DNA of 64,000 nt from Lichina pygmaea (GCA_963422465.1 OY730171.1:3286001-3350000), one strand, 5' to 3'; positions 7,529 through 59,891 are shown, numbered from the stretch's first letter. Notes: generated from the letters alone by a model not told the origin. Numbers and translations are program-made.

Positions 7529-7569
7529 ACGTATGTACCTTCCGTACCTGAGTACGGAAGTACATACGT
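7529..7569. repeat. GTAC-type inverted repeat (hairpin)
   Basis: ACGTATGTACCTTCCGTAC, a 4-base loop, then GTACGGAAGTACATACGT. The arms match except for one extra C. The right arm contains the recurrent element GTACGGAAGTAC. Confidence 0.8.
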
Positions 7570-7896
7570 ATATATTACGACATAGTAGAAATAGGCCCGG
7601 GGAGAGGAAGACAAACAGGCACGCAAGATACTCGCCCGTGAGAACAACGACAAAGGCCTCCGGGCGGCTTCCGACTTTCCCGTTGGCGTACACTGTACGT
7701 ATGTACAAGCAGACTAGGAGGAGCAACGGAACTGGAGAAGTCCAATTGAGCCTAGCTCTCCATACACTAAGAAGATCCTGGTCCATGACAGCCCAAGAAA
7801 AAGAGGAAGAGACAGGGAGCCCCCTCCAATAACGAGCTTCTCAAAGTCGCTTCCTTCCACTGAGGATTCAATCCTGCCTCAGCCGCTAGCGTGCTC

Positions 7897-7942
7897 GCTA
7901 CCCGTGCCATAGGGGGTTAATACCCCCCATGACACGGGTAGC
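7897..7942. repeat. 21-bp inverted repeat with TAAT loop
   Basis: The left arm (7897-7917) and right arm (7922-7942) pair at 19 of 21 positions around a TAAT loop. Each arm begins GCTACCCGTG when read outward. No gene adjoins it. Confidence 0.85.
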
Positions 7943-9090
7943 TGTTGCTGTCTCGCGATTGATGTACAGCGCAGTTGAACTTCGCTAGAGCACGACGGCC
8001 AGAAGGATCCACACACAAAGCCGACTACAATACGGCTACACTCAACTGTGACAGGGCACCTCTACAGAGCATGGACAACTTCATAGAGCAGCAAGATAAT
8101 CAATTGCTCCCTAGTACGTCTCCACCTCAGAGATGAATCCCGCGATCTTTTTTAGCTAGGAGACGAAAATCTCTTTTCTGCGCCTCCGGAGTAATGTTCT
8201 TCCGCTCCGAGGGCTGTTTAGTCATCGACCCCCTGACAAACGCCTTGACTGATACTGTAAGTAGCCACGCACGTGCCACGGTAGCCTCGCGAGGGTCTAG
8301 AATCCGGATCAAAGTTGACCCGAGCTGTCATTGAGCTGTCATTGAGTGCCCCCTTCCGAATCGGTACGTACAGTATATACGGAAGTACCAGGTACGGAAA
8401 GAGGTACAGTCGCACGACACAAGTCTGCGTACACCTTCATACATAATCTACCTGGGGTTAGTCCGGAGGATCAATACATCATCGCTTGCTATTGTCGCTT
8501 TAACTTTAATTCTGTCGCATTACTTAAGAAGAGAGCAGCTGTTGAGTTGTACCGGTGGGCGCAGACTTGTGTCGTGGCACTGTACAACAGTACGTAATAC
8601 GTAACTGCGTCTGTCTCCCGGCCGTGCTGAACGCTCAAGGTGGCGAATGCCGGCGCACTGACCATAATAAACAAGTTACCGAATTGCGCAAGGAGCTGAT
8701 GGCCCAGCTGAACCCGATGGGGCAAACAAGCGTGAGCTGACAGTCGGGACATGGTCGATGCAATGCAGGACAACGTTGCAGGGAGTCGTCACGTTCTGCT
8801 CTCCCTTCTCGCCTCCGCAAGCATGGGTCTGATATAACTGGGATTGGGTACCTATCCTGTCCATCTGGGATGACATCTAACTGGCTGAGGTGGCAGCGGA
8901 GTCGTGGATGGCTTGTCACCCTCGGTTTCTGCCACTTGTGATCAGATTGGTCTGAAGAATCTGCAGTCGGATCGGAGAACCAGCCAGTAAGCATCGTCCC
9001 GGTTCTTGTCCGGTGAACAGGCAACCGAGCCTGCTTTCGTCTGATCCGATCTAAGTGGAACCGTGACAGCAGAAATCCTCGTCACACGCA

Positions 9091-12000
9091 ATGGCATCCA
9101 GCCCGCCAGCGCCAGCTGGGCCTAGCCCAGACCGCCGGCCAGGTGGCGCAGCTCCTTCACGGCCTGTGACAATGACCGACGCCTTTGCAGACGTTTTCCT
9201 CCCGAGAAGCATGACACGCCGACTGGCCACCAACGGTCCTCCGAATAACTCTCCACGAGCTGGCCGACCAGTCGCACAGGTGCCAACGGCGGCTAAGCAG
9301 ATGTCGACCACCAACAAGCCGTTGTCACCCAACGACGGAAACAGCATGAAAGACAAGGTACGGAAGTGGCAGGAAGACTGTGGTGGTGCCGCTGCTGCCG
9401 AAGACACTATCGACACCACCTCTCCCTCAGCAGAAGCCCACCTGGACGCCCCTTCGAATGCAGCAAAGGAGCAGGGCCAGAACTTGGGCAAGTCAAAGAA
9501 GCGGACTAGGCAGAGGCACCGCAAAGGGCAAGAAGAGCCGCTCAAGAACGGCCCCAAGGCGACCCCTTCGAGACTGGATGACGATATGCCGCGGCGAGCA
9601 AAAGCGTCTTCTCCAGCGACCCCGAAGAGGCGAGTCGTCAGCGACGAGCATTGGGTTAGAGAGAGGAAGAAACAAGACTCGGCTGCCACGGAACTTCCGA
9701 ACAACACGCGCGAAGCCCTGAAGGGACGGCCGAGAAATGCGCCGCTAAAGAATCTCGTCGAGGCGTGGATGGAGAAATTGCCAGTCGACGACGAAATCAC
9801 TCCCAAACGGCGGCCGAAGAGGATGCGGCCAGATCGGACGAGTGAACGTTCCGAGGTAGTCGTCGGAGAAAACACAGGTCGGACTAGGTCTGACGATTCT
9901 CCACCGACTCCGTCGCGAAGAAAGCCACCGAAGCCTCCCTCCCCTGCACCTGCACCTCAAGGAGTCAAGGGGTGGCTACGGTCTCAGAGAACGCCAAGCC
10001 CTGTTGCGTCGGGTCCGAGCTCGCGTCACTCAAACGGATCAGCATCTCCAAAGGCGGCTGGGGCAGAATCGACGGTCGAGCGGAACGCTTTGCCTCGGCA
10101 CAAATCCAAGCGTCGTGGAAAAAGATCGCACCGCAAAGTCCGGCGCGGCTCGCCAGACCCAGAGGGATCTGAGCGTGGACCGCCACCGAAGACGACAGCC
10201 GTCAAGGTCGATCCCCGCGAAACGAATCTGAGGGAGGATAGGCATGCGGCTCCGGACTTGGCGCCCGTTCCCGGCCCTCGGAAGCCCGAGGGCCGGATTG
10301 AAGCCTGGCTTGACAACACTCCGGATCCATTCGTCGATGTTCAGACGAACCCGGATCCGTCAGCCGTGGAAGTTTGCCATGGGCCTCCCGAGGAAGGTCT
10401 TCCGGAAAACATATCGAGCCGAAACTCAGTCAAAGTCGAATCGCGTAGGAGTGGGCCGACGAAGGCTAGGGTCAGCGCCGAGAAATGCCGCAAAGACCCA
10501 GGCAAGGAATCCCGCAAGCTACATGTGTCTTTCGACATCCCCAGCCCACCCTTCGCGGGTGCGGATCATCACACCTCGAATGACGTCGATCCACATCCAG
10601 ATAGACAGCACACGGGTTCGCCCACGTCACCGATCAAGAGAGGCGGTCGTGCGAGAGAGCGTCCAGCCAAGAGTGCGGTCGTCAAGAGTCCTTCCGCAAC
10701 AGAGGAGCCGTTCTCCGAGAACACCGACGTGCCGTCGGCCGCTGCTGTAGATGCTCTGTCGAAGGATCAGACGCAGACGGCCATCGAGCCTCCGAATAGA
10801 CACGACGCCGAGCCCCGCACTGAGCGGTCTAGAGGCTCAGAGAACCGGGCGCCTGACGCGTTTCGAATGCAAGCTGAAACAATGTCACCCGAAGAGCCTG
10901 AGCCGGCGCCTGCAGTCCAGAGTCCAGCGATGGGTGATGTCTCCCTTGAGACCTGCTGGGCGCGTTGTCTACCACCGCAGGATGCTTCCATGAACAATCA
11001 GCTGCCAAGGCTTGACGGTCGAGCGGAACCCGCTGAAGGCAGCATCGCCTCTTGCACGGACCTGGCTTCTATGGTGTCCCTGCAGAGCACAGCGAGCGGA
11101 AGACTGAAGCCCTCACGAAGCGTCAGAGCACTTCGAAGCAACCTGACCGACCCAACGCTCACGGACCTGATGAGGGAGCTGTCCGAGGATGAAACCAGAT
11201 ACAGGCGTGAATTACATACGCTGGTGGATGGAGTGATCCCGGTGCTGTTGACGTGTGTCTTGTCCAAATCGGACTCCGCTACCGCAGCGGGCCTTTATGG
11301 CACATCGTCGACCAACGCAAACGATCAGGTTTTCACGCAGCCTATCATCAATATGGGAGTTGCCCTAGAACGGCTCAGATCACTTCACAAACGGATTCCA
11401 CTACGGGATCCCGACAGATTACTTCAGTGGGCCAAGGGGGCTCATAACATCTACCAAGAGTACATCAATTGCTGGAGGCTTGGCTTTGAAGACGTCGTCG
11501 TCAACCTAGGTCCTGCAGACTCCAACATCGTTGAGGCACGTCAAGACGAGGAAGCGGGCGCATCGCGACCGTCCAAGGAACAGTCAGACGAAGATCCGGG
11601 CATGCCGAGGAACGCTGACGGAGACGTGGTCGACGCTCAGGGAAGGAGGGTCGACGTGGCCTACCTTCTCAAGAGACCGCTCGTACGGCTCAAACGTCTG
11701 GCGAAGACATTCAAGGTACGCTCATCTCGTCATGTCACTTCAGCAGTTGCTGAGGGTCATAGGGAATCAATCATCAGATGCCGTCCAAGACGGCCGGAGA
11801 GCAAGAATCAACGTTCCACTCTCTCTTCACCAGAGCTCGCACGAAAGTGAGAGACGAGGAGGCGAGGGTCGACGACGAGACAGCGGCAGCGCTCGATCCT
11901 TCCGAGGCATTCGAGCTGCTATCTCTCGCACCAGCGGCGTCTGTCACGATCGACCCAACACGCTACGTCACACTGAGAGACATGTTCAGCCTCACGCTTC

Positions 12001-15000
12001 GGCACTCCAGCGGACAGACGCTCACGCGCAGGGTTGAGCTCTTTCTGCGGGACAGCGATTCCGCGGAAGGAGGAAGTGATATCCTGGTCGCCGAGCTTCG
12101 GGATGACGGCCATGGCCTGCTCTTCGCCCCGATCGATTCCAGCCTGTGCTCTGCACGGCAGGGTGGACTACCGGGAGAGGCTGTCGTAATGGTAAGAGGT
12201 ACCTCGGACGATGGTCAAGAATGGCACGAGATCCTGTTGCTCTACTCCGATCACGTTGATGCCTGCATCGATTGGATAGATGCTCTTGGGTCGAATCCTA
12301 GGCCACCTGTCATAGCCCGCCAGCAATCGTTCATCCGGGCCAGGCAGCCATTGTCGATCGAGCCAAGATACGACTTGGAGCCGGTCCCGGCCTCGCGGCA
12401 GGCAGCCGGGCAGACTCAGCAGCCGACACCGGGACTCTCGCATCTATCGTCATCCCGTCTTCATGATCGCGAAACTCGAAGTCTATCCGAATCTTCTTGC
12501 GCCGGGCAAGCCGAAGGGTACGAAGGGCGTAACAACGCCATCAGCCAGGCTTCATCTCCGGTCCTTCCATCTTCTCCGGTCGTCACGGTCAAGCAGAGGC
12601 CGAGTCCAAAATCGCCCCAAGCCGGCGGCTCCTCGCAGCTCAGTGCCGAGAGACCGACTACTCCTCGTTCACCCAAGGCCTCTGGCGGCGCCGCGACGCA
12701 AGCTGGTACGAACCAGAGCAGTGGACTTCGGAGAGTCAACGCGAAAAGAGCATCAAGGTCCTTTGATCATTCAGGCGGTACATGGCAAGATCGGAGAGCA
12801 GCAAGCGTCGGCGGCGGCGGCAGCCCGAGATCCGAGCTGTCCGTCGCATCAGTCGGCTCTACTCCCAAAGAAGCATTCTTCGCACGACAGGACTTGGCGG
12901 CACCTGACTTCGAGATCTCAGCAACTTCTACAGCAGCAGCAGTTAAACCCACTTCCAGGGCTCGCTTGTCGCCGGACCAAGATCGCCGTCAAGACAGCAA
13001 TTTGCGTCAGGACACGCGGCCGTCTGGAGCATCGGTCAAGTCCGCGGCCCTACCGGGTGGTAACAAGCAGGCGATCCAATCTCGAAGCCAGCCCAGCCCG
13101 TCACAGAGCAACGAATCGCATCTAGAGGACTTCGACCTCGAGAAGATCTACTCTCCTGACCCTGATCTAGCTCGGCGAAAAACCACATGGGGAAAGAAAT
13201 CTACCTCGCCCTCTCCGGTCACTCCACAACATACATCCACACTCCCATCCGTCGGCTCTCCGTCACTTTCGAATCGGCGCAACGGGGCTTTCCGAGACGT
13301 CACGGGATCATCCGGCAACATCGAGCAAGCAGGAGATAACACAGCTGCTCAGAACACACACCGTGCCGGCAACTCTCCCCTGGACATACCGCACAACCCG
13401 GGACTAACAAATGAGTCTACCGAAACAGTCGAAGGGCTGGCGCCATCCACCCCACCGTTGTACGCGGTTCCCGCTCCTTCGCGGCTGAAGAATGACATCA
13501 AGGTCAACGCTGGTCTTCCGGCCCTGACACCCAGCTTCCGGAGCGGATCTCGTTCGTCCTCGCCGTTGAAGAACGAGTATGAACCGTCAGCAACGTCGGA
13601 AGACTCGTCGGAAGACGCATCGGTCGCGGCAGATATACAACTGCCCGACGATGATGACGAACACGACACCCTGTCCGACACCACGTCCGAGGAGGCGGAT
13701 GAGGAGCTCGAGGACGGCGATGCTCCAACTCCTCTTCTTCCCATCGGCGCGCTACAGCGCTTGCGCAGGGTGTCCCGTCCCGGGTCGAACCGCACAGCGA
13801 ACCTCCCAAGCCTCGCGCCGTCCGATTCGGCGTCTCAGGCGCCATACCGGAGCGTGCCATCTCAGCCGATGGAGACGGCCCGAGCGATCGCGTCGGTCTT
13901 TGCCTGGTCCGAAGGACGAGGGGTGTGGGAGAGCCTGCATCCCACCGAATGCAGCATCGTCGTCACCGGCGGCCTTATCGAGGTCCACGAGATGACGGCG
14001 GAACATTCGGCGCCGAGGGCCACACCGGCGGCATCGGGGGATAGGGACAGCATGTCGGGCTCCCCGAATTTCCGGCCGGGGAGGCTGCCGCTTGTGGGCC
14101 AGGAGCTGACCCCGCTGGTGATGGTCCATCGCGGCACCGCTTTGGACATCTCCGTCCGCTCCCCGCCAACGGCTCGATCGACGCTCGACTGCGGAAGCCG
14201 GATCATGTTCCGGTCTCGCAATCCCAGCGAGTGCGAGGCCCTGTACGGGCTGGTGACAGCGGCGAGGCTCAACAACCCCACGTACGTAGCTCTCCAGCAC
14301 GCGCGATGCCGCCACGTCGGGCCCGGCTACTCGGCCCTCCGCGGACGACAGTCGCAACGGCGGAAAAGCTGGCTGGGATGGGGTCGGAAGCGGAGCCAGC
14401 GGGGCGACAGCGTGGCGGAGCCAAGCGTGTCTGCCTCCGAATGCAGCGTCGGCACGAGACGTTCGTTGCTCTCGGCGATGGGATTCCTCGACCGAAGCGG
14501 GCGATTCTTCAGCACTCCGCTGTCGAGCACCAGCGGCAGCATCGCGTCGACCGAGCCGACGGCGGCGTCGAGCGGCGAGAACAGCGGAGCCTCGACACCG
14601 GCGCAGGAGTCGAGCCCGGGGAAGAACAACTCGATCGGGCCAGCCGAGACCAAGTGTCGCTTGCACGTGCGAGCGGATCGGGGCAAGAGATGGCACAGCA
14701 TGGGTAGCACGCGACTCACGATCGAGCCGTCGCCCGTCGTCGGCAGCGGTAGCTTCTTCCCGGGACCGGTCGACGAACGGCGCATCATCGTCAAGGCCAA
14801 GTCCACGCGCAAGGTCTTTGTCGACGCCTGTCTCGGCAGCCGATCGTTCATGCGCGTCGGCACCTGCGGCATCGCCTTCGAGGTGCGCGAGGACATCTGT
14901 GGGCCGACGGGCGAGGTGGGCCAGGCCGGGCCGACGGGCGGAACGGGCGTCCAGCACAAGATCTATCTGATCTCGGTGAGTTTTTGCGTTTCTCTGGGCA

Positions 15001-15230
15001 GATACAATCTTCTTCGTGTCGTCCTGTCCCTTCTCGACTTGCTTCGTTCACGTCCCTTCCCTTCCGTCCAAGCCTCGGCAGACGACGATCGAGTAATTTC
15101 TGTCTGGCACTCCCTTGCAGTTCAGTCTAGTCCAGTGAAGTATAGATTCTGACGACTCTTTACCTCTACCGTCTAGCTCCCCTCGGAGGTTCAAGCCGCG
15201 TACATCTTCTCGCTGGTGGCTCCAAGCTAG
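9091..15230 (+). CDS. large RhoGEF (DH)-like protein with PH-like C-terminus
   Basis: Exons are 9091-11715, 11778-14975 and 15177-15230, giving 1958 residues. About the first 680 residues are low-complexity, basic and Ser/Pro-rich. Around residues 689-800 lies a Dbl-homology-like helical region (LTDLMRELSEDETRYRRELH, then KRIPLRDPDRLLQWAKGAH), continuing to YLLKRPLVRLKRLAKTFK. Exon 2 opens with a PH-like segment, then a long Ser-rich acidic linker. The last ~250 residues look like a second PH-like fold ending IYLISLPSEVQAAYIFSLVA across the final intron. I know this architecture from Pezizomycotina, where it is often listed as an SRm160/300-like or RhoGEF protein. Activity toward a Rho GTPase is inferred, not shown. 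Both introns are phase 0 with clean GT/AG ends. The start is the first ATG of the long frame. Confidence 0.85.
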
Positions 15231-16317
15231 GCCGGTTTCTCGCGCACGCTGGGAAGACTCCTCCACAGGTCTTGTTTTGGGCTTCATGAGGTCCAGTGTA
15301 GGGGACGGCAGGCATTCTATCGTCATGCGTTTTTAGCGTTCTCATTTCCGGACCGGGCGTTCGTCCTTGTCGGCGGCGGCGCCGTGGGCGAGTTGCAGCA
15401 TAAGCGGTGCCGGAAGGGGGAGCACTTTCTTGTCATCATTCTCCCCACTACCTGCCTACCAGCAGCATCACAGCAGGAAATGCTCATGAGCAGGGCAGGC
15501 AGTAACCCTTTTTACTCTCTTTTCTTCGCCTCTCTTTCTTCTTGCTTCTTCCCTGTGCTTCTTTCCTCAATCTCTTGCGGCTTAATGGTTCTTTTACTGG
15601 GTCTCTGCATATACACATGATACCCTGGTGTACGGAAATGATGTCCACACGGCGTTGAGCTGCACTTGGCAACGAGCAGCCGTATGGCTTGGCACATGCT
15701 TCTGCTTTGGGAACAATGACTAGCCGCTCATCTGGTCTTTTTGTGAAGTTCCCGCCAGGTCTGTTTCAGTACAGGGATGGGCAGCGGCATTCTCTCGGGT
15801 CCTAATGTCACCTCCTCAACCCCCACCCCTAGTCCTTCCCCAGAAAGAAAAAGATGATTGGGGAGGTGTGTGAGGTCTGAATTTGCACCCCACACAAACT
15901 CTAACTCCCAGAGTGTCATACGGGCAATCCAGTTCTTTGCGGTTTATCTCCCTTATGAAAAGGAAAGGTGACAAAACCAAGCTCAGGAGCTGCTATATGA
16001 CATATCCTCTGGGATATCACTTTCCCTGAGTATCAGGTGGATGTGTTGATGTATGGAGTGCGCTGCTGAATGGTCAAAGCTTGGTGTTGATGTTCAGAAT
16101 CAGCTATCATTCAGGGGTAGGCATGTGGGATTTTAGTTCCCTTGCGTGTTGTGGCAACAGTCTACAAACACAAGTGGGACTTATGATAACTACCGCGGTT
16201 GTCAATAGTATCAGCCCGCCCCTTGTACCGCCAAGTGATTCATCATCTGGCACCCGTAACGCACACACCACTGCTCCATCGTCCGCAGCATTCTACATCT
16301 TGAAAGGGCTTGAAGAA
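15231..16317. other. intergenic
   Basis: No gene was recognised. It holds the 3' region of the RhoGEF-like gene and the promoter of the queuosine gene. The open frame extends upstream of 16318, but that part lacks family similarity. Confidence 0.5.
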
Positions 16318-18328: not shown

Positions 18329-20905
18329 ACCGCCAGGAAGCCTCGTCTCGAGGGCTTTATTCATTCAATCACCACACCTAAAGCTTCTCTGGTTCGTGTC
18401 TTGTAAAAGACTAGACTAGTTCAACCAAGCACACCAACTTTCATCTGCAAACACCACAACTTTCTGATATACCATTCCCCAAGACACTACATATCCCTCG
18501 AGTTTTCTCTCTAGCCTAACCCAAGTCTTGGTATTTCTTTACTGAGAAGTTTTCTGGGAAAGAAAGCATGTAAGTATTTAGAATTCCTGCATGGCTGGCA
18601 CAACTACAGGCCTATCGAGAGAGGGGAAGAAGTCTAGTCCATTGAGCCCCTCTCGGACTCGAGGGCTATATGTCCCTGATCTGGCTGACTAAGGCTACCG
18701 TACTGACCAAGCCAGGCTAGCCCCTGGCCCTGCCGCAACAATGGCTTACGTATCAGCCAGATCAAAGTAAGGATAAAAGAAGATACAAACGTCTAGAGCG
18801 TTGCCGTTCTCCTTTTTTTTCCCTCCTTCCTTCTCTGCCGTCGTTCCTTTCTTTCTATTTCATTCTATCCTCACCCCCTTCTGTCCGAATGCGCAGGTGT
18901 ACGAGTAAAGAGAGCAAGGAGTTTTTCGCGACCATGTGCCTTTTGCGGCTGAACCTCGCGGAGGAACAACTATACATACGTACGTACGGAACATACAGTA
19001 CAGTACTCCGTACAACACCGGTACATACATATGAGGTACCGTAACCACTCCCCCGCACCTCTCTAGCTAGGCAACCCAATTGAACCACGGCCCCTTGTTC
19101 TTCAGTGCCCGATTCTCCTAGGACGCTGTACGTACGTACAGTACGGAAGTAAATAGCGAGCAGTTCGAACATATGGAACGCAAGGACCTGGATGGAAGAC
19201 GGGTGAGAAGAACCTGTACGGAAGTACTCGTACGAGACTTCACGTGACCGTCTTCACGCCAATACCGGTACGTACCCTCGTACCCTCGTACCTCGTACTG
19301 CATGGCTCATCACGTGCCACCACCCCGACTCCATCCCGCCCCTCACCCCACCCTGCCCCACCACCCCACCAGGCCCAAACCCATGCCCGCCGCGCCGAAA
19401 CCACCCAGGCGTTGCCACGACATCGCACGACGAGCCGACCAAGGCGGCCAAGGCAGCCAAGGCAGCTGGTACGTGGCTAGGACAAACCGTACCGTAGCTT
19501 CCTTCCGACTAAGGGCTAGGCGGTACAGTAGGTTTCCGACTAGCTCACGATGTGAGGCAGAAGAGCTGACGGGACGATCGAGATGTCTTGGCTTGGCCTG
19601 GTTGCAACACCTACTCCGTAGGTCGAGAGCCTTACTGGTAGATGGCTGCAGTGGTAATACTGCCGGCCCGGCTCGTCAGTCATGCATCAGGTCCAGGTAC
19701 GAAGTACGGGCTTGCTGGTCCGACTTGCCCCACACCGGGTGCTAAATTTAGTAAGCTGTTCCATTGAGTCGCCTGCCCTGGTTGATCCTTTGCTTTTTTT
19801 TAGTGACCGCCCTAAGCAAGTGCAGTAGTACGGTATTCACTTGGTCTTGAGACATCAAGTTCTTTGTTGGTTGTGCTCAGTTACGCCTGCTACACCACTG
19901 AGTTGAGCCTTGGTCTGGGCCTGCGCCCTCTGCAGGTGAGTGCAGAGATCGATCGACTGGTCTAAAGAGTACCGTCTGGCTTAGTCAGACGTTAGTCAGC
20001 CACTCCCTGAAACAACAGTCCTCTGCCGAACCCAACTGCTAAACGACGAGATTCAGCGGCAGGGCTATCCTCGCTCGAGCTTATCAAAAAGATCTACCGA
20101 GGTATTTTATCTCGAAGATCTTTCCGTCATTTCTGCTCAACGGCGCTCGGACGCACTTACTGTACATACGTACTTCGTATAGGTACAGAACGTACTGTAC
20201 GTACAGTACGTACGTACGTATGTATCTTTGCGCACTTTCCTTTTTGTTCCCCCGTTCAGGAACATTGGCAGCATCGGCTGCCTATCAGTGATGGCACGAC
20301 AAGATGTTCACCACCACCACGATCTTCTTGGAGGCAGTCTTTCTCCGAGCAACGCTTGCATGCCGCTGGAGGCTCAAGGAGACAGAGGGGATTGATGGCA
20401 TCAGTCGCCGTACCGTCGTACCTCCGTACGCCAGGGTGCGGTAAGGCTCATGCGAGAAGATCATCAGATCCGTCACGGACTCCTGCCGCTCACCTTCGCC
20501 GATCCCTTACAGTACAATCTCGGAAGGTTCAACAGGTCCGAGCACCAAGCCCACACTAGACAAACCCACGCTCGGCATGCCCGAGATGACGTCCCGCCAT
20601 CGACGAGCCCCCCACTTCGACCGCGCCGGCTTTCATGCCGTCACCAGCCGGGATCGATGGTGTCATCGGGCGGACAAGCGGACAGACCCGGAAGGCGTTC
20701 GTGCGACGTTCAGCCCTTCTGGGGTATTGTTGCTTCGACCATGGATATAAGACAGGCCCGATGCCGCTACGGCAAGGAAGCCTTCTTCCGGAGTGGACCT
20801 GTAGCACGAGACGAAGTCTGAGGTGACGACGGCCGAGCAAGGTCCAGACAGCGGCGTTCGACTGCGCGGTGCACGTGGGCGGATTCTCCCCTTGAAGCGT
20901 TCAGG
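18329..20905. other. 2.6-kb gene-poor spacer with GTAC clusters
   Basis: No gene was recognised. It contains the inverted copy of the dispersed repeat (18702-18740), polypyrimidine runs (about 18810-18890), dense GTAC/TACG clusters (18970-19035, 19125-19150, 19214-19300, 20160-20225) and GTACGGAAGTAC elements at 19141 and 19216. Confidence 0.5.
18702..18740. repeat. dispersed repeat, copy B (inverted)
   Basis: On the minus strand this reads TTGTTGCGGCAGGGCCAGGG and continues GCTAGCCTGGCTTGGTCA. That matches copy A near 6639-6694 apart from an insertion and a few substitutions. Confidence 0.6.
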
Positions 20906-21320: not shown

Positions 21321-21365
<45 letters not shown>

Positions 21366-23177
21366 CGCGATTGCTTTTCTCCTCTGCTACAGGTGTCACA
21401 TCACGTGTAGCTTTTGATAAATCATAATTTTATCTCTCATACGATCATCTCTGAGGTTGCATGCTGCTGCACGTCATCCCTGATGGTTTCTCGTTCCTCC
21501 TCCGCCAGCCGTCTGTGTTCCGAGCCCCAGCCTGTCGCTCCCGCCGAGCCGAGGCCGTACACCCCGATCCTGCGGTCGTGCTGGCATCCAGAGTGCTCTC
21601 TCTCTCCTGGGAGGGGGCAGCATCGGGCGGTGGCCCTTACATCAGCGAGCCAAGGATATATCTTGGGGCCCTCTCCAAGGGGCGTTGCCGCTGGTGTGGG
21701 GGCCACCGCTCCGTGCCCGTTCCTTCCCAAGGAGAAAGAACTTCTCGCGCTGCTCCCCACCGCCTCCATCTCTCCGAGACCGAGCTGCGTGGCCGTTACT
21801 AATGTGCAGCCCTCGCACGGTGGCTTATGCGAAGCCTGCAACTCTTCGTCTGCTCGGTTAACTTACCTCCGGTGAACAGGCACAAGGCAAGCGCGTCTTC
21901 GTCAAGGACATTGCACATTATCTGCTGCCTCTGGATGGAGTGCCGACGTCGATCGTCCCCTCGGTGGCGGACTCGACCAAGGCGTCCAAGTCCGTCAACG
22001 GTGGCGAGAAAGGCATCAACGGCGCACAGTACCGCGGCAGCCACGGAGGCCCGTACGGTACTCTCGCCGAGCCGGGCAACCCCACCGTCCTCCCGAGAGC
22101 GATCCTCGAGAAGTTCCACTTCACCTTCCTCATCCGCCACCCGCGCCACAGCATCCCGTCGTACTACCGCTGCGTCGTGCCGCCCCTGAGCGAGATGACG
22201 GGCTGGGAGTACCTGACGGTCAGCGAGATGGGCTACGCCGAGCTGCGGCGCTTGTTCGACTACCTGCGCGACGAGGCCTTGATCGGCCCTCACTTGGCCG
22301 GCGGCGAGGCCAACGGGGAGACCAACGGGGGGACCAACGGGGGGACCAACGGGGGGACCAACGGGGGGACCAACGGGGGGACCAACGGGGGGACCAACGG
22401 GGGGACCAACGGGGGGACCAACGGGGGGACCAACGGGGGGACCAACGGGGGGACCAACGGGGGGACCAACGGGGGGACCAACGGGGGGACCAACGGGGGG
22501 ACCAACGGGGGGACCAACGGGGGGACCAACGGGGGGACCAACGGGGGGACCAACGGGGGGACCAACGGGGGGACCAACGTGGAGACGAACGGGGAGACCA
22601 ACGGGGCGTCGAACGGATCCAACGGGATCCACAAGGCCAACGGACACGCAGGCGTCGAGATCTGCCTGATCGACGCGGACGACCTGCTGGACAAGCCGAA
22701 GGCGGTCATCGGAGCGTTCTGTCGCAGTGTCGGCATCGCCTACGATCCCAGCATGCTAGAGTGGGACACGGACGCCGAGCAGAAACAGGCCGAAGCGGCC
22801 TTTTCCAAGTGGAAGGGCTTTCACGAGGATGCTCTCAATTCGACGGGACTGAAGAGTCGACTTTCGGTACGTTCGTCCACCAGTGCAGATACGGCTACCA
22901 TTCCCCCGCACCGTCCCCCCGCCACCTACTCGCTCGATCTTTGCAGGAGCCTGGCCCCTGTGACCTCGGCAAGCCGAATGGAATCCGGCCGTACATCTAA
23001 CCGTGACCGTCATGGCAGGACGGGAAGCGTGCCCCGAAGAAGGCCAAGACGGACAAAGAGTACGACGCCGACTGGACGGCCAAATTCGGCGTCGACCAGG
23101 CGCGCTTCATCCGCGACATGGTCGATCAGAACGTTGCCGACTACGAGTATCTGAAGCAGTTTGCTCTCAAAGTCTGA
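20906..23177 (+). CDS. sulfotransferase-like P-loop protein with GGTN repeat
   Basis: Exons are 20906-20968, 21053-21235, 21880-22866 and 23019-23177, giving 463 residues. The start MAMKPIFVATHPRSCSTAYE resembles the 5'-phosphosulfate-binding loop of sulfotransferases. The segment FLIRHPRHSIPSYYR (near residue 165) resembles their 3'-phosphate-binding Arg/Ser motif. A C-terminal block follows (VEICLIDADDLLDKPKAVI, then FCRSVGIAYDPSMLEW). Related fungal proteins are usually annotated only as P-loop/sulfotransferase family; the substrate is unknown. Residues about 229-313 are a pure GGTN repeat, probably a disordered insertion between two conserved blocks. Intron 2 (21236-21879, 644 nt) is far longer than other introns here, starts with a weak GTTGGG donor and contains (TGC)14. 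The join AEAQGKRVFVKDIAHY supports it. Confidence 0.82.
21322..21363. repeat. (TGC)14 trinucleotide repeat in an intron
   Basis: Fourteen uninterrupted TGC units lie inside the 644-nt second intron of the sulfotransferase-like gene. Read in the upstream frame they would encode poly-alanine if the intron were retained. Confidence 0.9.
22321..22572 (+). repeat. 21 perfect copies of a 12-bp coding minisatellite
   Basis: The unit ACCAACGGGGGG is repeated 21 times without a single change and encodes Thr-Asn-Gly-Gly. Degenerate units flank it on both sides (GAG, GTG and GCG variants), as expected for a block that expanded from an older, mutated array. Confidence 0.97.
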
Positions 23178-23695
23178 CCGTCCTCATCGCCATCCACCGC
23201 TGGGGGGTTTTTTTTCCCCTCTCGAGGTGACGTCACTTGGACGGGAGATCGAGATCAGATGAGATGGTATAACTTCAATGGATACGGAAGTAATCATGTC
23301 GGGGATGACTGTAGACACGCGAAGGAATGGCAGCAGGATGGAATAGACGGGAATGCGAATGGCAATTGTGAACCGTGAAGCCATCAGTGCTACGACAAGT
23401 TACGGGTCCGGACATTCCAGCTTGGTCATGCTCGCCAGATTGCATGGGCAGTTACAAATACAGTACGTTCCGTACGAACGTTGTGGTTGACATACTTGTC
23501 CCCATAAACTTCTGTACACACACACTCTCTCTCTCTCTTTTGAGTACGGTAGTGAGCTATGGCTGGGTAATCAACCGAAGTACATGCCTTCGCCCGCGTC
23601 CTCGACCGGTACAGTAAGTACGTACTCGTCACAGCAACAGCGTCAAAACATGACCCATCCCTGCCGCAGGCATTCCGTACCTGACTTGCCTGCGA

Positions 23696-23815: not shown

Positions 23816-24792
23816 GTCTAGCGGATATAACGTTACATGAGTACGCTTAGTAAGCTGGAGTACCCGCAACAGTATCAAAAGGCCCGTACAAAAACTTTGG
23901 TGAGGTCACGATGCGACATCATGGACCAGGTCCCCGAGGTTCTTGATGCACCAGCAACCCCAAAGTGACAGCAAACAACTCAAGATGAATGTCTCCATGC
24001 TCAGCACCTTCGCAACCTTGGCGGGACCTACCCAGGCAGTCATTGATGCTAACAGGGGGCATACAGGATACTAAGCTGTACTTGTACAAGAGAGCAAACA
24101 TCTGTCTCAAGAGTTTTGATCATGCGGCTCTACAATCGACTTTTGCTTGTATCAATCGAACGTTATATCCGCTAGACACCTCGTACTTCCATACAGGCCA
24201 TTTCATTGTGGTGTACGGAGTACTTCCGTATGGGGGGGGGGGGGGGGGGGGGGAAATTGTTGTAAATCACGTACGCTTATTCCGTACGTACATACGTACA
24301 TATGTACCTTAGGCACTGTACGGGGGTACGTACCGTGCGTACGTACGTGGGTACCTAGTGGAAAATGTCGTGGAAAATGTCGTAGAGATGGCTCGCTCTG
24401 ATTAATCACGAGGGCTGGCGGGCGGTGTTTCCACTGAGTACTGTACAGAGGATGGAGTACTCTGTGGAACTTGTGGACGAGGGGAAGTTGCTGAAAGTAG
24501 CTACTGAGGAGTGCTGTAAAGAGCTGTATGTATGGGGGTGTGTATGGAGGTTACAGTACGTACGAGCACTGACTGACTGACTGTGTGTGTGTAGCAGTAC
24601 GTATGTACGTATACCTGACCGCGGCCCGACCTTTGGACAGGCAGAAAGAAAGGAAGGAAGAAGAGAGACGAGAGAAGAGAGAAAAGAGAAAAAGAAGAAA
24701 GGAGTACGAGAATGCTTCTGCATGGTTACTGTACATACACACGCCACTCTGGCAAGAGAAGGAAGATCAAGTAAGGTGTGATCACCGTGGAC

Positions 24793-24904
24793 GTGCTTCT
24801 CTACGAGTAGTATCCGAAGGACTATGGATGTGCTCTCTACGAGTAGTATCCGACCGACGATGGAGTAGCTCTCTGCGAGTAGTATCTGAAGGAAGATCGA
24901 GTAG
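24793..24904. repeat. three-copy ~38-bp tandem repeat
   Basis: The core CTCTACGAGTAGTATCCGA occurs in two close copies and a third diverged one (CTCTGCGAGTAGTATCTGA), each followed by a purine-rich GAxGAT segment. Confidence 0.85.
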
Positions 24905-25271
24905 GTGCTGTATGTATACAGTACTACAAGTCGGTAGGAGAGGAGAGGAGAAGGAGAAGGAGAAGGAGGAAGGGGGATTGGGTCGACGTACGGTACGTGC
25001 GGACGTGGTGAGGAGAGGAGACGAAGGAAGATCGGGTTGATGTACCGTACGTACGTACGGAGCGAGGAGAGAAGGAGAAGAGAAGGAGAGTGGAGGAAAG
25101 GAGGGGGGGTTGGGAGAGGGAGATTGGGGGGTTGGGGGATGGGAGAGGCAGAGGAGGACAGGGAAGAGAAAGAAAAGAAGGATGAGATACGTTTCTAGCT
25201 TCACTTTGACAAATAGAACAACGACGATGATAATACAGAACAAAGAACGCGACATGCGAAGAAGAGGCCAC

Positions 25272-41937: not shown

Positions 41938-42451
41938 ATCAGTCACTTGTTCCTGAGGAGAGAAGAAGGAGCATAAAATAGACACACTTGGGCATATCGA
42001 GTCGTAGCGCTGAGGATCTCCCTGCAGAAGTGCCTACTTCCCTGTGAGAGATCTCAAAGATCGCACCACGTCAAAGTGAGATGGGTTTTGTCGCATAGTG
42101 CATAGCGGCCATCTTGAAAGAGACAACTGTTGGTTTCGAACTTCGTTTGGTAGCCGGCCCATGTGTACGGAAGTACTTACGTACCGTTGGCTGCAGGTAC
42201 ATTACGTAGTGGTACGTAACGGACATACGTAGGAAGGTACGGAACGTACTCGTACGGGTGAGTGGTTCAAGTCACGTGCGATTATATCGTACCTTGACGT
42301 TGTGGTTTACTCAGCCAACCTGAATTGAACCTCCGAGGATCTCTTGCACGTGAGTACTCGTATACTTACTCTATCAAAAGATCAGTCACTCATCGACAAC
42401 AAGATCTCAGGTCCACAAATCCTTACTGATACTCTGTGCCTTGTCAACAAC
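41938..42451. promoter_or_regulatory. bidirectional promoter NRDE2/UTP10
   Basis: A 514-bp spacer between divergent starts. It contains GTACGGAAGTAC at 42165-42176, further GTAC clusters to about 42260, a CACGTG near 42275 and a CTCATCG (PAC-like) core near 42388 just upstream of the UTP10 start. PAC elements mark ribosome-biogenesis genes in yeast; assignment here is tentative. Confidence 0.45.
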
Positions 42452-48444: not shown

Positions 48445-48991
48445 TGCTTGTGGGTGGAACCGGGCCGCTGAGCATGCTGGCTCCTCGGAGTCGGCCGAGC
48501 CGCTGTAATTAAACCTGGATGAAGATTCAATCGAACATTCGGGCAAATTCTCGTAGGAATAGATATCTGTCTCATACAAGGCCACCGTCGCAAGGGCTCG
48601 ACTTCGTGGGGAATTTGTGACTGCCCCTTTTCCCGGTCGATCGTAACAGAGCAAATACTTGTCCTGTACGGAGACTGACTTACAACTACTGACAGTGCAT
48701 GCGTCCCCAAGCCAGTATCGCCGTAAGTGGCGAGAAATCTTACTCAGCGATCAGGTCACTCGGGTGCCCGTCTGACGGAGGTCCTCACGACGCATTCCCA
48801 ACCCTGACGAAGAATTTGTTCTGAAATGCTCTCCCTACGCAAAAACCTCACAACGACCACTCTCACCACCCCCGACGTGCCATGCACCTATAGTACGAGC
48901 ATCCGGAACCGCAACTCGTCCCTCGGTGCACCTACCAAGCTCCACCTCTCCCTAACGTGACTGCCGCCGAGTCCATTTCGAAACGCCAGCA
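48445..48991. other. intergenic
   Basis: No gene was recognised. The region includes the UTP10 3' region and the promoter of the RNR-regulator gene. Confidence 0.5.
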
Positions 48992-53445: not shown

Positions 53446-54785
53446 ACCAGGGCCGGGCTGCTGGGTGATGTGTGTGTGTGTGTGTGTTTGGGTGTGGGGG
53501 GGGGGGGGGGGAGAGAGATGAAGAATTGCGTGCGGGCAGCTGGTGGCTCATCTGAGCACTTGGGTACTGAAGTAGTCTGCTTGACGGGCACTGGATGGAT
53601 CACGTCACACTACTTTCTACTCTGCATCAGTCGACAGTGACCGTCTTCACACCACCGCACATTAGCGTACTTGAAGTTACCGTCTTTAGACTCTTCCCCT
53701 CTCCACAGCGACCATCTCACATTAAACGGTACATGTCTATGGGGGGCTCAAGAGAGCATCCATCTGTCTCCAAGAAAGCCTGTGGAGAAACAAGGACCGT
53801 CTCCAAGAGAGTACCGTACATGTAAAAACTGAAAGAGAGAAAGAAAGAAGAAAAGCAGCATGATTACCATCACTTCTGTCTTCTAAGAGAGCGAGAGAGA
53901 GAGAGCGAGGAAGGGAGGAACAAGAACAGCAGGGACCATGATCAGTCACTCGAGGGATAAGAGAGGATGCAGACCACCGCCACAGCAACTGTCTCTGAGG
54001 GAGCACGTGGAAAAGGAAGAAACCCCTCCCCCCCCCCCCCCCCCCCCCAAAAAAAAGACAAGGGCTGTCTGTCATGTACTTGGTTGGCTGGTTGGTTCAG
54101 TGATGACAATGATGATGACGATGATATCTGGGTCGCAGTGCTAGGATGTCTGTGTAGCGGTGATGTGACATGTGTACTCTGTACAGCAGTGATGTCTGTG
54201 TAGCACTGCAATCCACAGTTATTATATGATGATTAGATGTCATGTCTTGCATGGCAGTGGAGTGTTGTCTTGCATGGCAGTGGAGTGTGGTCTGCATAGC
54301 ACTGATGTGACATCTACACGGCCTGTCTATCTGATGCAGTAGTATGATATCTCCATACCGTAGTTTAGTTTCTTTTAATTTGCCTTTGTTTGGTTTGGTT
54401 GATTTGATTCAGCTTCATTGTCTTGACTGACCTGTGCTTGTGTCCCGCTGTGTGGTGGCTCTACTGTCCAGTTCCTCTAACCGTGGTAGTTGGTGTGATC
54501 ATGAGTACAGTAGTAGATGTTTGGCCATTCATTTTATTTCTGGCCTTTTCGTTGTCTTGGGGATGATTGAGTGTGGCTTTTACGTCTGCATCACGGAAGA
54601 CATGTCTGTGTCGTGATTGAGTTCTTCCTGATGACGAAGATACCGGATGGGAGGAGAATATCAGAGAGAGAGAGAGTGTGGATCAGGCTGGTGGAGATGG
54701 CCCAAGTTGTTTTGATTGATTGTGCGAGCTGTGTAAAAGTAGCACGCCCGCCGAAAAGAAGCGCAACTGATCCCTCCACCGGTCC
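53446..54785. other. intergenic with homopolymer runs and minisatellites
   Basis: No gene was recognised. It contains a (TG)n run with a 16-base G tract (53496-53511), a 21-base C tract followed by eight A (54028-54056) and a degenerate repeat zone (54130-54330) that includes two adjacent copies of GTCTTGCATGGCAGTGGAGT. Confidence 0.6.
54240..54292. repeat. two-copy tandem repeat
   Basis: TGTCTTGCATGGCAGTGGAG is repeated twice head to tail, within a zone of looser GTAGCACTGATGT-like repeats. Confidence 0.75.
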
Positions 54786-55735
54786 TCAACGGTTGCTCTT
54801 GGCGACTCGTTCCAGTTCGTCCTTCTTCTTGATGGCGTAGCTGTTGCTGCTTCCCTTGGCCGCATTGATCAGCTCCTCGGCGAGACATTCGGCGATCGTC
54901 TTGACGTTGCGGAAGGCCGCCTCGCGCGCGCCGATGGTCAACAGTGCGATGGCCTGATTGACTCGTCGCAGCGGAGACACGTCGACGGCCTGACGTCGCA
55001 CCGTACCCGCCGAGCCAATCCGAGTGCTGTCTTCCCGAGGGCCGCAGTTGGCGATGGCGTCAACGGTGACCTGGATGGGGTTCTGATCGGTGAGGACGTT
55101 GATCTGGAGAGTTGTTAGCATGTGGTGAATATGTCAGCGATTGCAGGACTCGAGACTAGGCGGATTGCTCGAGGAACAAAATGTAGAGTCGACGTCTGGT
55201 CCTGCGTCACAGCGTATGACAAAAGACAGCAGTCGACTCACAATCTCAAAGGCGTGGGCTACGATTCGCACGGCCATGAGCTTCTTGCCGTTATTTCGGC
55301 CGTGCATCATGAGCGAATTGGTGAGGCGCTCGATGATGGGACACTGGGCCTTTCGAAAGCGTTTGACAGCGAAGCGGCCGGCCGAGTGGGAGATGTAGCA
55401 GGGTGCACGGGTTTGGATGTAGTCCCTACAGAGCAGTGGAACAAGTCAGCCAACGACCATCTCCAACAGGACGTTCCGACTGATCTAGTCGGCTATATGG
55501 CACCATCCCCACCCCTTCCTAACGACCCCAGATACCCGTGCAAGACCAAAAACGCGTTGCCGGCAGAACAAAGTTAGAAGAACACTTACGACAACGAAAT
55601 GTCTCGAACGTCGACTTCGTCATACGACCACTTGCCGAACAGCTTGATCTGGCCGATCTGGTCGAGGACTTCTTTGGGCAGGACCTCGTAGCCGTTGGCC
55701 GCGGGCACCGCCACCTCTCCGTTTTCCGACGACAT
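54786..55735 (-). CDS. RPS5: 40S ribosomal protein uS7 (S5)
   Basis: Small-subunit head protein at the mRNA exit. Exons on the minus strand are 55735-55590, 55425-55242 and 55103-54786, giving 215 residues, normal for fungi. Blocks: [20 protein letters not shown] at the start, [80 protein letters not shown] and a C-terminus ending [14 protein letters not shown]. The introns (164 and 138 nt) are longer than most here. I looked for a C/D snoRNA in them and saw none. A TTAGGG element lies about 165 bp upstream. Confidence 0.97.
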
Positions 55736-56260
55736 GGCTGTGCGACTGTTGCTGATGCTACTCGATATGTGTCAGGTTAGCTTCCCGGCAGATCTTCGTC
55801 GTTGGTGGTTCGCTCACTCGTGTACTTTGGTGACAGCTTGGTTCGCTGCCGGTTGCGATAGACGAGTATCAAGCGTGACTGTCAAACTTCCACACAAATT
55901 AGGGCTTTGCGCGGGGGGCATGGTATATTTAAACGAGCCTTTATTATCGGGAAACAGTAACCGAGCTTTCATAGAGTTCACGTGAGTAGCCGTCAAGTAC
56001 TTCCGTACGTACGAGTACACGAAGGTCAGGCCTGCAACTTCAACGAGCACGTCAAACAGGGCCGGATCACTACCAGGTTCAATATCAAGCCACCAATAAA
56101 TTCGATCGAGGTCATGCAGTACGCTCAATTCTCGCAAGGTAGATTGTAGCAATGATACGGATATGAGATACGTAAATCTACACCACAAGAATCTACACCT
56201 CCTAAAACCCTCGGCCAGGACGTAGCCAAACCCGGGGGGATGCGCCCTTCCAAATAAGAT
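55736..56260. promoter_or_regulatory. RPS5 upstream region with TTAGGG and GTAC element
   Basis: The spacer between LHS1 (its 3' end) and RPS5. It has TTAGGG at 55899-55904 (plus strand) and the recurrent element GTACTTCCGTAC at 55997-56008. The TTAGGG parallels the telobox-like elements upstream of RPL4. Confidence 0.5.
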
Positions 56261-59200
56261 CTATAGCTCGTCGTGCTCCTTCTGCTCGGGTTCAGCCTCC
56301 ACGGGAGTCTGCGTGCGACTTGCCTCTGGTGCGACCGTGCTTTCCGAAGCGGCGGGCGTTTGCGTGACCTTTGAGCTGGCGCTATTGGCTTTCTTCTTCG
56401 GCTTTGTCTTGACCTTGGTGGACGACGACGACGACGACGACGACGACGTCTTCTGCTTGACAGGCTTGCGCATCTGCTGCTCCAGTACCTTCATGATGAC
56501 TTGGTTGAGCTCCTTGGACTTGGCCTCGATATCGCTCGTCAGGATCACGGGGTCATCCCGCGGAGACAGTTTCCCTTGCTCCGCGAGCTTGGCATCCAAC
56601 CAATTCTGGATGGATTCGTAGCTGCTTCTCAGATGGGCAACGTCTTCGACCGTGTACAGAGGAGCATCTGGTGACTGGGAAGGTGCTGTCGCGGTTGAAG
56701 TGGAGGTGCTCGAGCTCGAGTCTTCGAGGTCCGCAAAGTGGTCGCTTGCTGAAGCCGTCAAGGCGGACTCTGGTGCGCTGGCAGCAGACTCCGAGGAAGA
56801 GGAAGTGGAAGAAGACGAAGAAGAAGAAGCTGCCTCTGCGCTTGCCTTGTCGATGTGCTTTTGCATGGCGTTGACGAGGACCTGCGTCTGGTTCAAGGCA
56901 TCCTTGATGAATTCGACCGCCTTGGGTCTGGTGGCCGCCTCCCGCCGTCGCTTCTCGACAGGTTCGACGAGGTCTTCCAGCTGCTTCAGTCGAGCTCTGA
57001 GTTCGCTGCGTGCGGCATCGGCGCCATCCTCATACAGCCAGTCCGATGCTGCTCCAAGCTTCGCTTGCAGCTGACTCCGCTCCTCGTCACTCGATGACGC
57101 GATGAAAGACTCGTCCGTCAGCTGATCTCGAGCTCGGTATATGAACGCCTCCAGAGTGTTCAAGCTCTCCTCGCGCATGAGCCGTGCCTTGTCGGAAGCA
57201 TCAAAGGCGGCCAGTCTGTACCTCTGTCAGCCGAAAAACATCCACAGTCGTACGACGGGTCGATCGATACCTTTTCTTCATGCGGTCAAGGTCCGCCTTG
57301 GACACATCCGGGATCCCTTGATCTTCCGTGGTGAAGTGCAGATAGATGGTCTCGGTTGCCTTGCTCGTCTCCGCAGCGTTCTCGGTCTCGTTGTCTGCCG
57401 TCGAGTTGGTAGTTGCGCTGGACGCACTTGGCGAGGCCGCTTCAGATGTTGCGGACTCGCTGGCGCTGGACGAGTCACCGGCTGACGACCCTTCGCCCAT
57501 TGGCTCCTGTTCGTCCTGCTTTCCGCCGAAACCGAAGAAGCCCTTGACGTCATCCACGACGCCTCCCTTCTTTTCGACGTAATCCAAGGCGCAAGCAACG
57601 GTACCGTAAGCCACCTCGGGTAGGCCATCGCGTGCCCCGAGCCTGAAAACGAAGGTTGTGGTGATGTTCGCCGCAGCACATCCTGGCTTGTCCTTCAACT
57701 GAGCAACAGATGCCGTAAGGTTCCGCGTCTGGATCTTCGCGATGGGGTTTAGTTCGCCCTCGGACTCTCCGCCCGCGGTGCTGTCATCCTGGTAGAGCGT
57801 GAAGGCAAAGTCTTGAAGGTTCTTGAACGGGACGTTTTTCTCGACCCCTCTTTGCGACGTAGGCACGAACAGCTTCTGCCGCCGATCTGGAAGAGCAGCC
57901 GATGCCCAAGTCAGCCGGATGCGCGGCCGAATGTTCTGGACTGGGCCCCTCACCTTTGCCATCGACAGGCCACTCGACCCCGAACGAGTACGGTGTGGCT
58001 TCCTTGACTTGGATTTCCTTGACCCTGAAGCTAGGGCTCAGGCTCGCGCCTCGGAAAGCGGCGCCGAACACCGCAGCCTCGTCGGCGTTGACGTTGCTCC
58101 TGATCTTCGTGCTCCCTCCGAGCAGTTGCTCGAGTGTCGATTGGACGATGGGGGTTCGCGTCGCACCTCCGTGCAGAATCACCGAATCCAGCTCGTCGAC
58201 GGCCATCTTCGACGCCTCCAAGGCCCGCTTCACGACGACCTTGACCCGTTCGGTGAAAGCAGAAGCCATGTCTTCGAACTGGGAGCGCGTGATCTTGTAG
58301 CGAAAATCGACGTCGTCATAGAGACCCTCGAAGCTGGTCGAGGTCTCCGAATTTGCGCTGAGGACCTGTCTGACGCGCTCGGCATCCTTCAGCAGCTTGG
58401 CCATGGCCCTTCCGTGGACCTTGACATTCTCGGCGGCGACACCTTTCCCCTGGGCGCCTTTGCTCTTCACAAACTCATCGACCATGTGATCGACGATGGC
58501 TGCATTTAGCGCGTCACCGCCGAGCGATCTGTCATGACTAGTGGCGAGCACGGCTACATCTTGAAACGTCTTGTTGTATTTCCCGACGTCCTTGACTGTC
58601 TTCTGTTGGAATTCCAGGATCGAAGCCGTTGTCGAACCAGCCCCCATATCGAAAACCAGATGCCGCTCCGCCTTCCCTCCTTCCTTGACGCTGGGGAACG
58701 CGCGAGAGGTGGCATAGTTCACTCCGACTGCCAAGCCATCGCTGATCAGACCCAAGACTTTCAGACCCGCCAACTTGGCCGCCAGCTCCAGCGCCCGTAT
58801 CTCCTGCGCCGTGAAGAACGCCGGGGCCGTGATCACGACGTCCTTGATGATGGTCCCTTTGCCTGCCAAAGCCTCGGCGTTCGACCGAATGTTCTGTAGC
58901 TCCATCGCGAGGAGCTCTTCCACTGTGAAAGGATCCTGAGCCTTCCCAGACGCCTTGGAGACAAACGCCGCCGTCGCCCTGGTCTGATCGCGAACGATTT
59001 CTAGAGCCGGGTGTGATCTTCTGTACTGCTCGACCGACTCCGAGTGTTCCAACGGCTGCCCGAGTAAGGGTTTGAGATTGGGGTAGACATCGCCGGGATA
59101 CCGAGCTGCGAGCGCCATGGCATCGGAGCCATAGACACGCTCCGGAAGGTCATCCTTCTTCTGCGCATTCTGCGGGGGTTTGAGGGCGACGGCCGATACC

Positions 59201-59391
59201 TCTTTGCGCTTCGAGTCCTTTGTCAGGACAATCTCCAGGGGGATACCAGGTTTCACGAGCGCCGCCTTGATGTACTCCGTTCCTAGATCGACCCCTAAAA
59301 CCGCTGATGCCGCCGATGCTGTGAAGGAGAAGAAGGAGAGAAAGAGGAAGAGCGATGTCAATAGAGCGGTGCGCCGGCCCGGCGGCGCCAT
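56261..59391 (-). CDS. LHS1: ER-lumenal Hsp70 Lhs1/Grp170
   Basis: Large Hsp70 of the ER lumen that acts as nucleotide exchange factor for Kar2/BiP and as a holdase. Exons on the minus strand are 59391-57954, 57886-57271 and 57215-56261, giving 1002 residues. The ATG at 59391 opens a signal peptide (LLTSLFLFLSFFSFTASA); the open frame extends 47 codons further upstream but would bury it. The Hsp70 nucleotide-binding domain shows VLGVDLGTEYIKAALV, LVFDMGAGSTTASILEF, DRSLGGDALNAAIVDHMVDE and VILHGGATRTPIVQ. The C-terminal half has Ser/Ala/Thr-rich low-complexity loops and helices typical of Grp170. The protein ends KEHDEL, an HDEL-type ER retrieval signal. Confidence 0.95.
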
Positions 59392-59891
59392 GACCGAGGA
59401 GTCTGGCGAGGGAGGGTCGTACGAGCGACCGACGGCGACGCTGCACCCAGCAGAGAAGAGAATGCGCCTAGCAATCCAATCGTCCAAAGACAGGAACTCC
59501 GCTACCCTCTGCGACAAAAGGAGAAGTGACAAACGGAGTTGCCAGAGAAAATTGGGCCGATGAGGTAGTCTCCGATAGACATCTCTCCGGTTTTGGCGGG
59601 TGGGAGTGCTCTGGTTGTCGCCAAATAGCGAACCCGAGAGGACACTTTGGCATCATCTGAGCTCCGCATAGGACCACAGCTGAATTAAAGCTACTTCCGT
59701 ACGCGCGTATTCATCTATTCGAACGAACCTGCTGACAACGAACAGCAGGTCAAAGCTCTCCAGAAACACTCTCGCAGGCAGCGACATGAACAGTTTTGGA
59801 AGTTACAGCAGAGCAATCCGCCCTCTCTTTGCCCTTTCGCCCAACGATAGTCGACCCCAAAGCGAAGGCCCAACAAGGAATGGGACATGTC
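59392..59891. other. intergenic
   Basis: The LHS1 promoter and the 3' region of the LCHN-like gene. A CTACTTCCGTAC element lies at 59691-59702. No gene was recognised. Confidence 0.5.

What the first reader, a model, noticed from the sequence alone, without database searches (positions are those of the whole stretch)
7552..59702. A recurrent intergenic element GTACGGAAGTAC, specific to spacers
GTACGGAAGTAC (or its complement GTACTTCCGTAC) occurs exactly at 7552-7563, 19216-19227, 42165-42176 and 55997-56008. One-mismatch or truncated forms lie at 8378, 19141, 23282, 24220 and 59691. A fixed 12-mer is expected about 0.01 times in 64 kb on both strands. All copies I saw are outside exons and often sit in clusters of GTAC/TACG. 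Two are in promoters of core genes (NRDE2/UTP10, RPS5). It could be a transcription-factor site, the terminal motif of a miniature mobile element, or a chromatin-organising element. I know no named fungal element of this sequence.
Basis: partly seen in the sequence, partly recalled or inferred. Interest (0 to 1): 0.65.

Follow-up and report, generated by a model that had tools for sequence, protein, structure and literature searches.

The report
Jumping-gene exit scars crowd intergenic DNA
The repeated 12-letter word is most likely not a control switch but a scar left when a small cut-and-paste jumping element leaves its landing site; this fungal genome holds over a thousand exact copies and, by rough estimate, tens of thousands of related scars between its genes, which themselves look like preferred landing sites.

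Summary
The window has 4 exact and 7 one-mismatch copies of GTACGGAAGTAC (0.13 expected), all in predicted noncoding DNA; the genome has 1,063 exact copies (reversed control: 1). The 12-mer is one word of a vocabulary, TA-X-TA, with X = CG, CGG, CAG, CGT, CCGG, CGAG, CGGAG, CGGAAG. These are best read as excision footprints of Tc1/mariner-type elements. The key evidence is about 100 copies of one 176-bp MITE (one copy at window 8405-8584). Of 27 insertions of 2 nt or more in 90 alignable copies, 13 convert a single TA of the family consensus exactly into TA-X-TA, and about 7 more do so allowing one change. Two of them create TACGGAAGTA (L161, L082). Extant elements have a TA target duplication, prefer G-TA-C, and have ends starting CAG, CGG and CGT, which match the three commonest 3-nt X. 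An extant family with a DDE_3 transposase begins CGGAAG. MITE insertion sites are about tenfold enriched in scar words, so scars seem to make new targets. No promoter preference was seen. The 6-nt scar is longer than usual (2-4 bp) and unexplained. No related genome was available to show pre-insertion sites at unique loci.

The parts
7552..7563 (+). scar G-TA-CGGAAG-TA-C (exact 12-mer)
   Evidence: interpreted
8377..8388 (+). scar A-TA-CGGAAG-TA-C
8405..8584 (+). extant 176-bp-class MITE: TA target duplication, TIR CAGTSSCACGACACAAGTCTGCG; same family as the ~100 copies used as the substrate test
7899..7940 (+). short palindromic element CCCGTGCC...(TG)ACACGGG flanked by TA (family D)
   Evidence: related copies in L014, L017, L025
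7270..7279 (+). probable scar TA-CGGGAG-TA, seen as an insertion in a repeat alignment against another locus
18980..19039 (.). scar cluster (7 GTAC): GTACGTAC, GTACAGTAC, GTACTCCGTAC
19141..19152 (+). scar G-TA-CGGAAG-TA-A
19216..19227 (+). scar G-TA-CGGAAG-TA-C, overlapping TA-CTCG-TA
20162..20217 (.). scar cluster (9 GTAC)
20418..20429 (-). scar G-TA-CGGAGG-TA-C (variant element end)
23283..23292 (+). scar core TA-CGGAAG-TA
24183..24194 (-). decayed scar GTATGGAAGTAC
24220..24231 (-). scar A-TA-CGGAAG-TA-C, next to TA-CGGAG-TA at 24213
24271..24354 (.). scar cluster (11 GTAC)
42165..42184 (+). scar G-TA-CGGAAG-TA-C followed by overlapping GTACTTACGTAC, in the NRDE2/UTP10 divergent spacer
55997..56008 (-). 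scar G-TA-CGGAAG-TA-C followed by GTACGTAC and TA-CGAG-TA, about 260 bp upstream of the putative RPS5 start
59691..59702 (-). scar G-TA-CGGAAG-TA-G in the spacer upstream of the Hsp70-like gene

Best explanation
GTACGGAAGTAC is the scar G-TA-[CGGAAG]-TA-C, left when a cut-and-paste element of the Tc1/mariner type that had inserted at the TA of a GTAC leaves again and the gap is end-joined. Insertion duplicates the TA. Excision leaves a few terminal letters (X) between the two TAs. Different element families give different X (CAG/CTG, CGG/CCG, CGT/ACG, CG, CCGG, CGAG, CGGAG, CGGAAG). The preferred target is G-TA-C, and element ends start with C, so most scars carry a GTAC at both ends. Each scar thus turns one preferred target into two, so scars accumulate in clusters. 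SHOWN: the words arise as insertions at TA inside copies of an unrelated MITE; extant elements have TA duplications, a G-TA-C preference and ends matching X; a family whose ends begin CGGAAG encloses DDE_3 transposase remnants; insertion sites and scars share places. INFERRED: that each insertion was an excision event, that end joining made it, that the CGGAAG scar comes from the CGGAAGC-ended family, and the self-reinforcing growth.
For: (1) 90 copies of one MITE (94.3% mean identity to consensus): 27 insertions of 2 nt or more, 13 exactly TA to TA-X-TA with the same X as genome-wide (chance mean 0.4-1.3, maximum 7 in 3,000 simulations); about 7 more fit with one substitution, by my reading. 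L161: GCTGTAACTC to GCTG-TA-CGGAAG-TA-ACTC. L082: GTGTACGCAG to GTG-TA-CGGAAG-TA-CCG-TA-CGCAG. L120: AGTAGC to AG-TA-CGGAG-TA-GC, showing that TA, not GTAC, is the unit. 22 deletions show no such pattern. (2) A second repeat family: CCTATCTAGCTG versus CCTATC-TA-CTG-TA-CCG-TA-GCTG (L029). (3) TA-X-TA enrichment in 155 kb of noncoding DNA: CG 342/71, CCG 83/15, CAG 82/20, CCGG 28/3, CGAG 30/4.5, CGGAG 17/1.1, CGGAAG 20/0.3. (4) Inverted repeats abutting GTAC: 22 found, against 0-1 for six of seven other palindromic tetramers (ACGT gave 10, in the same GTACGT-rich clusters); the GTAC hits outside such clusters gave the element families. Their ends CAG, CGG and CGT are the three most enriched 3-nt X. 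(5) Extant ends: TA in 104/114, G before TA in 72/114 (MITE) and 85% (CGGAAG family). TACGGAAGTA occurs 1,671 times, 64% of them flanked G..C. (6) The 6-nt words GTACGG-NN-GTAC are mainly AA, then AG, then GA, matching end variants CGGAAGC, CGGAGGC and CGGGAGC. (7) 45% of 28-bp MITE flanks hold scar words versus 4.2% of random noncoding pieces. (8) DDE_3 matches lie inside four CGGAAG-ended elements.
Against: Described Tc1/mariner footprints are 2-4 bp (PMC7913693); CGGAAG is 6 and CGGAG 5, so the cut or joining geometry is unexplained. CCC, expected from family D, is not among the enriched 3-nt X. The load is very high (scar words 477 versus 138 for reversed controls in 244 kb, roughly 45,000 genome-wide by extrapolation). 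No related genome was available to show empty, filled and scarred alleles at one unique locus. The MITE test shows insertion at TA, not excision directly. The 'about 7 more' fits were judged by eye.
Confidence: 0.88

Rival explanations
1. A transcription-factor or general regulatory-factor binding site kept by selection in promoters.
For: Exclusively noncoding in the sample; two copies lie near the starts of NRDE2/UTP10 and putative RPS5; very strong genome-wide over-representation.
Against: Scar-word density is not promoter-biased: 2.6 per kb in the 200 bp next to starts, up to 5.3 farther out, and 6.6 per kb at 750-1000 bp beyond gene ends. The same words occur inside MITE copies as insertions at TA. 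Co-option of single copies is not excluded.
Confidence: 0.04
2. Imperfect tetranucleotide (GTAC)n microsatellites grown by slippage.
For: GTACGTAC runs exist and GTAC pairs at spacings 4-9 dominate. Slippage may add to the TACGTA class.
Against: Single-step changes such as AGTAGC to AG-TA-CGGAG-TA-GC and GCTGTAACTC to GCTGTACGGAAGTAACTC add non-templated words, not copies of a unit. GGAA needs two transversions from GTAC yet is one of the commonest spacers.
Confidence: 0.03
3. Scars of another TA-cutting or TA-joining process (a nuclease, or aborted insertion with filler DNA) that is not element excision.
For: The MITE test shows insertion at TA with a duplicated TA, not excision itself. Long X (5-6 nt) is unusual for Tc1/mariner.
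Against: X matches the terminal letters of extant elements (CAG, CGG, CGT, CGGAAG, CGGAGG, CGGGAG), and scars sit where elements insert.
Confidence: 0.05
4. Terminal fragments of resident or decayed MITE copies.
For: The CGGAAGC-ended element begins GTACGGAAG.
Against: 42 copies of the 12-mer have unrelated flanks and none continues into the element end; the second GTAC is not in the element.
Confidence: 0.02

Closest known systems
Excision footprints of Tc1/mariner elements (e.g. Sleeping Beauty TAG(T/A)CTA, PMC2874221; ZB, PMC7913693)
   Same: TA duplication with a few terminal letters between the two TAs; 3-nt classes CAG/CTG, CGG/CCG, CGT/ACG match element ends
   Different: Also 5-6 nt scars (CGGAG, CGGAAG) in bulk; scars so numerous that they are among the commonest non-simple intergenic words and cluster at preferred targets
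TA-inserting fungal Tc1/mariner elements and MITEs (Fot1, impala, Trem, mimp)
   Same: TA target, short inverted ends, non-autonomous derivatives, DDE transposase matches in the genome
   Different: Strong G-TA-C preference; ends starting CGG, CAG or CGT. The Fot1-like DDE_1 family here has ends starting A (AGGTC/AGTCT) and does not give the C...G scars

Membership tests
Tc1/mariner excision footprint | Extra sequence sits at a TA and duplicates it (TA to TA-X-TA) | tested here: met
   13 exact cases of 27 insertions in 90 MITE copies; second family
Tc1/mariner excision footprint | X consists of terminal letters of a mobile element in the genome | tested here: met
   CAG, CGG and CGT match the ends of three families; CGGAAG, CGGAGG and CGGGAG match end variants; CCC of family D not seen
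Tc1/mariner excision footprint | Length of 2-4 nt | tested here: not met
   Met for CG, CAG, CGG, CGT, CCGG and CGAG; not for CGGAG (5) and CGGAAG (6)
Tc1/mariner excision footprint | Allele pair in which the element is present in one strain and the scar in another | not testable with these tools
   no related genome held
Tc1/mariner elements (source of the scars) | Inverted ends, TA target duplication | tested here: met
Tc1/mariner elements (source of the scars) | DDE/D transposase between the ends | tested here: met
   PF13358 (DDE_3) inside CGGAAG-ended elements at C4:1010839, C3:3869613, C2:753848, C1:4020513; two over the cut-off, two below it
Transcription-factor site | Positional preference near starts | tested here: not met
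Microsatellite | Length changes by repeat units | tested here: not met
   insertions are TA-X-TA with non-templated X

The most novel reading that the evidence does not exclude
Self-reinforcing target growth: because the elements prefer G-TA-C and their scars carry GTAC at both ends, each insertion and excision multiplies landing sites. Intergenic DNA thereby turns into ever denser scar arrays, so that one superfamily rewrites the word composition of a whole genome without leaving its own copies behind.
Probability: 0.5. Interest if true: 0.75.

Novelty: new variant of a known kind. Interest (0 to 1): 0.6.

Why it matters
Motif-finding in such a genome will report these words as top 'regulatory motifs' although they are repair scars. 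Counted as a record of past excisions, they show cut-and-paste activity far beyond what surviving copies suggest, and they give a natural readout of the excision and end-joining chemistry. The feedback between scars and target preference, if real, is a simple way for a transposon to reshape intergenic DNA.

Tried and rejected
Alignable transposon copies around the 12-mer: flanks of 42 copies do not align. Microsatellite slippage: rejected by non-templated single-step insertions. RNA hairpin with a GNRA loop (GUAC-GGAA-GUAC): considered, not pursued, since both orientations and many non-GNRA spacers are equally common. Fot1-like DDE_1 elements as the source: their ends start with A. Scars at one MITE site by exact pattern: 2 TA insertions versus 0 non-TA insertions, too few alone. 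All-against-all alignment of repeats in hand gave mostly poor alignments but two clear scars. Literature searches found no report of this word or of footprints as a dominant genomic word; the library is open-access only, so this is weak evidence of novelty.

Full report
GTACGGAAGTAC is present exactly four times in the window, with seven one-mismatch copies against 0.13 expected, and 1,063 times in the 32.5-Mb genome against 1 for the reversed word. In a 244-kb sample made of the window and eighteen 10-kb stretches, all 12 copies fall outside predicted coding DNA (the gene calls are from a simple codon model of my own, and probably miss genes).

The 12-mer is not alone. GTAC is followed by another GTAC after 0-5 bases far more often than expected, with a sharp drop after 5, unlike other palindromic tetramers. 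GTAC-N4-GTAC occurs 7,453 times against 541 for the control. Read as TA-X-TA, the enriched X in noncoding DNA are CG, CGG/CCG, CAG/CTG, CGT/ACG, CCGG, CGAG, CGGAG and CGGAAG. Copies of the 12-mer have unrelated flanks.

Inverted repeats that abut GTAC at both ends are found (22), with 0-1 for six of seven other palindromic tetramers; ACGT gave 10, in the same GTACGT-rich clusters. After setting such clusters aside, these led to element families with TA duplications: a CGGAAGC-ended family with about 1.6-kb full copies and 78 end matches, a 176-bp MITE with ends CAGTGGCACGACACAAGTC and 256 end matches, a CGTCCGGAACAC-ended family (L039, and next to L121) and a short CCCGTGCC palindrome. The 1.6-kb family carries DDE_3 transposase remnants. 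Its ends sit on G-TA-C in most cases. Later sampling of 114 MITE ends gave TA in 104 and GTA in 72. The three most enriched 3-nt X (CGG, CAG, CGT) are the first three letters of three of these families. The fourth family's CCC is not enriched.

The decisive test used the MITE as a substrate. One hundred and two copies were collected (plus the window and L001) and 90 aligned to two subfamily consensuses at 94.3% mean identity. They hold 27 insertions of two or more bases. Thirteen convert one TA of the consensus exactly into TA-X-TA. Randomly placed insertions of the same letters do so 1.3 times on average and at most 7 times in 3,000 trials; with shuffled letters 0.4 times. By eye about seven more fit if one substitution is allowed. 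X is drawn from the genome-wide vocabulary. L161 shows GCTGTAACTC becoming GCTG-TA-CGGAAG-TA-ACTC. L082 shows GTGTACGCAG becoming GTG-TA-CGGAAG-TA-CCG-TA-CGCAG, which creates GTACGGAAGTAC from a single TA. L120 shows the same at a TA that is not in a GTAC. A different repeat shows TA to TA-CTG-TA-CCG-TA with intact flanks (L029). These facts show that the words originate as insertions at TA. That they are excision footprints is inferred from the duplicated TA and from the match of X to element ends.

Two further checks agree. TACGGAAGTA occurs 1,671 times, and 64% have G before and C after, close to what the target preference of living elements predicts (0.63-0.85 per side). Forty-five percent of 28-bp pieces flanking MITE ends hold a scar word, against 4.2% of random noncoding pieces. 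This fits shared targets and suggests, but does not prove, that scars attract new insertions.

A regulatory role is not supported. Scar words are sparse in coding DNA (0.33 per kb) and spread over intergenic DNA, with the highest densities several hundred bases from genes, on both sides. This fits neutral debris removed where it harms genes.

Open points. Published Tc1/mariner footprints are 2-4 bp (PMC7913693), so the 5- and 6-nt scars need an explanation: a longer stagger in that family, or partial processing of the ends. The 6-nt words follow the end variants CGGAAGC, CGGAGGC and CGGGAGC, which ties them to that family but does not explain the length. The total, about 45,000 scars, is an extrapolation from 477 words against 138 control words in 244 kb. 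No relative was available for comparison of alleles.

Noticed in passing
window 22230-22685: A 12-bp tandem repeat (unit like CGGGGGGACCAA, about 26 registered copies) lies inside a predicted 404-aa open frame (21940-23154) with no Pfam match.
   Followed up: no
window 24798-24905: Three copies of a 36-bp tandem repeat beginning TCTCTACGAGTAGTATCCG.
   Followed up: no
window 23819-24174: A 354-bp inverted-repeat element with ends GCGGATATAACGTTACAT next to TA; a possible further MITE beside scars 24183 and 24220.
   Followed up: partly
G000 (e.g. C5:1531800, C7:2495381, C5:547571, C2:925723): 112 Fot1/pogo-type DDE_1 matches, several in uninterrupted frames of the same length (534 aa); ends AGGTCGTACCCCCC / AGTCTGACCCCCC at TA. 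They look recent, but their ends do not match the C...G scars.
   Followed up: partly
L025 about 2060-2100, L014 2881-2983, L017 883-933, window 7899-7940: Very short, almost perfectly palindromic TA-flanked elements (38-100 bp, ends CCCGTGCC), some with scar-like words in the middle.
   Followed up: partly
G000:C8: The eighth contig is only about 48 kb by subtraction of the seven contig lengths; possibly the mitochondrial genome.
   Followed up: no
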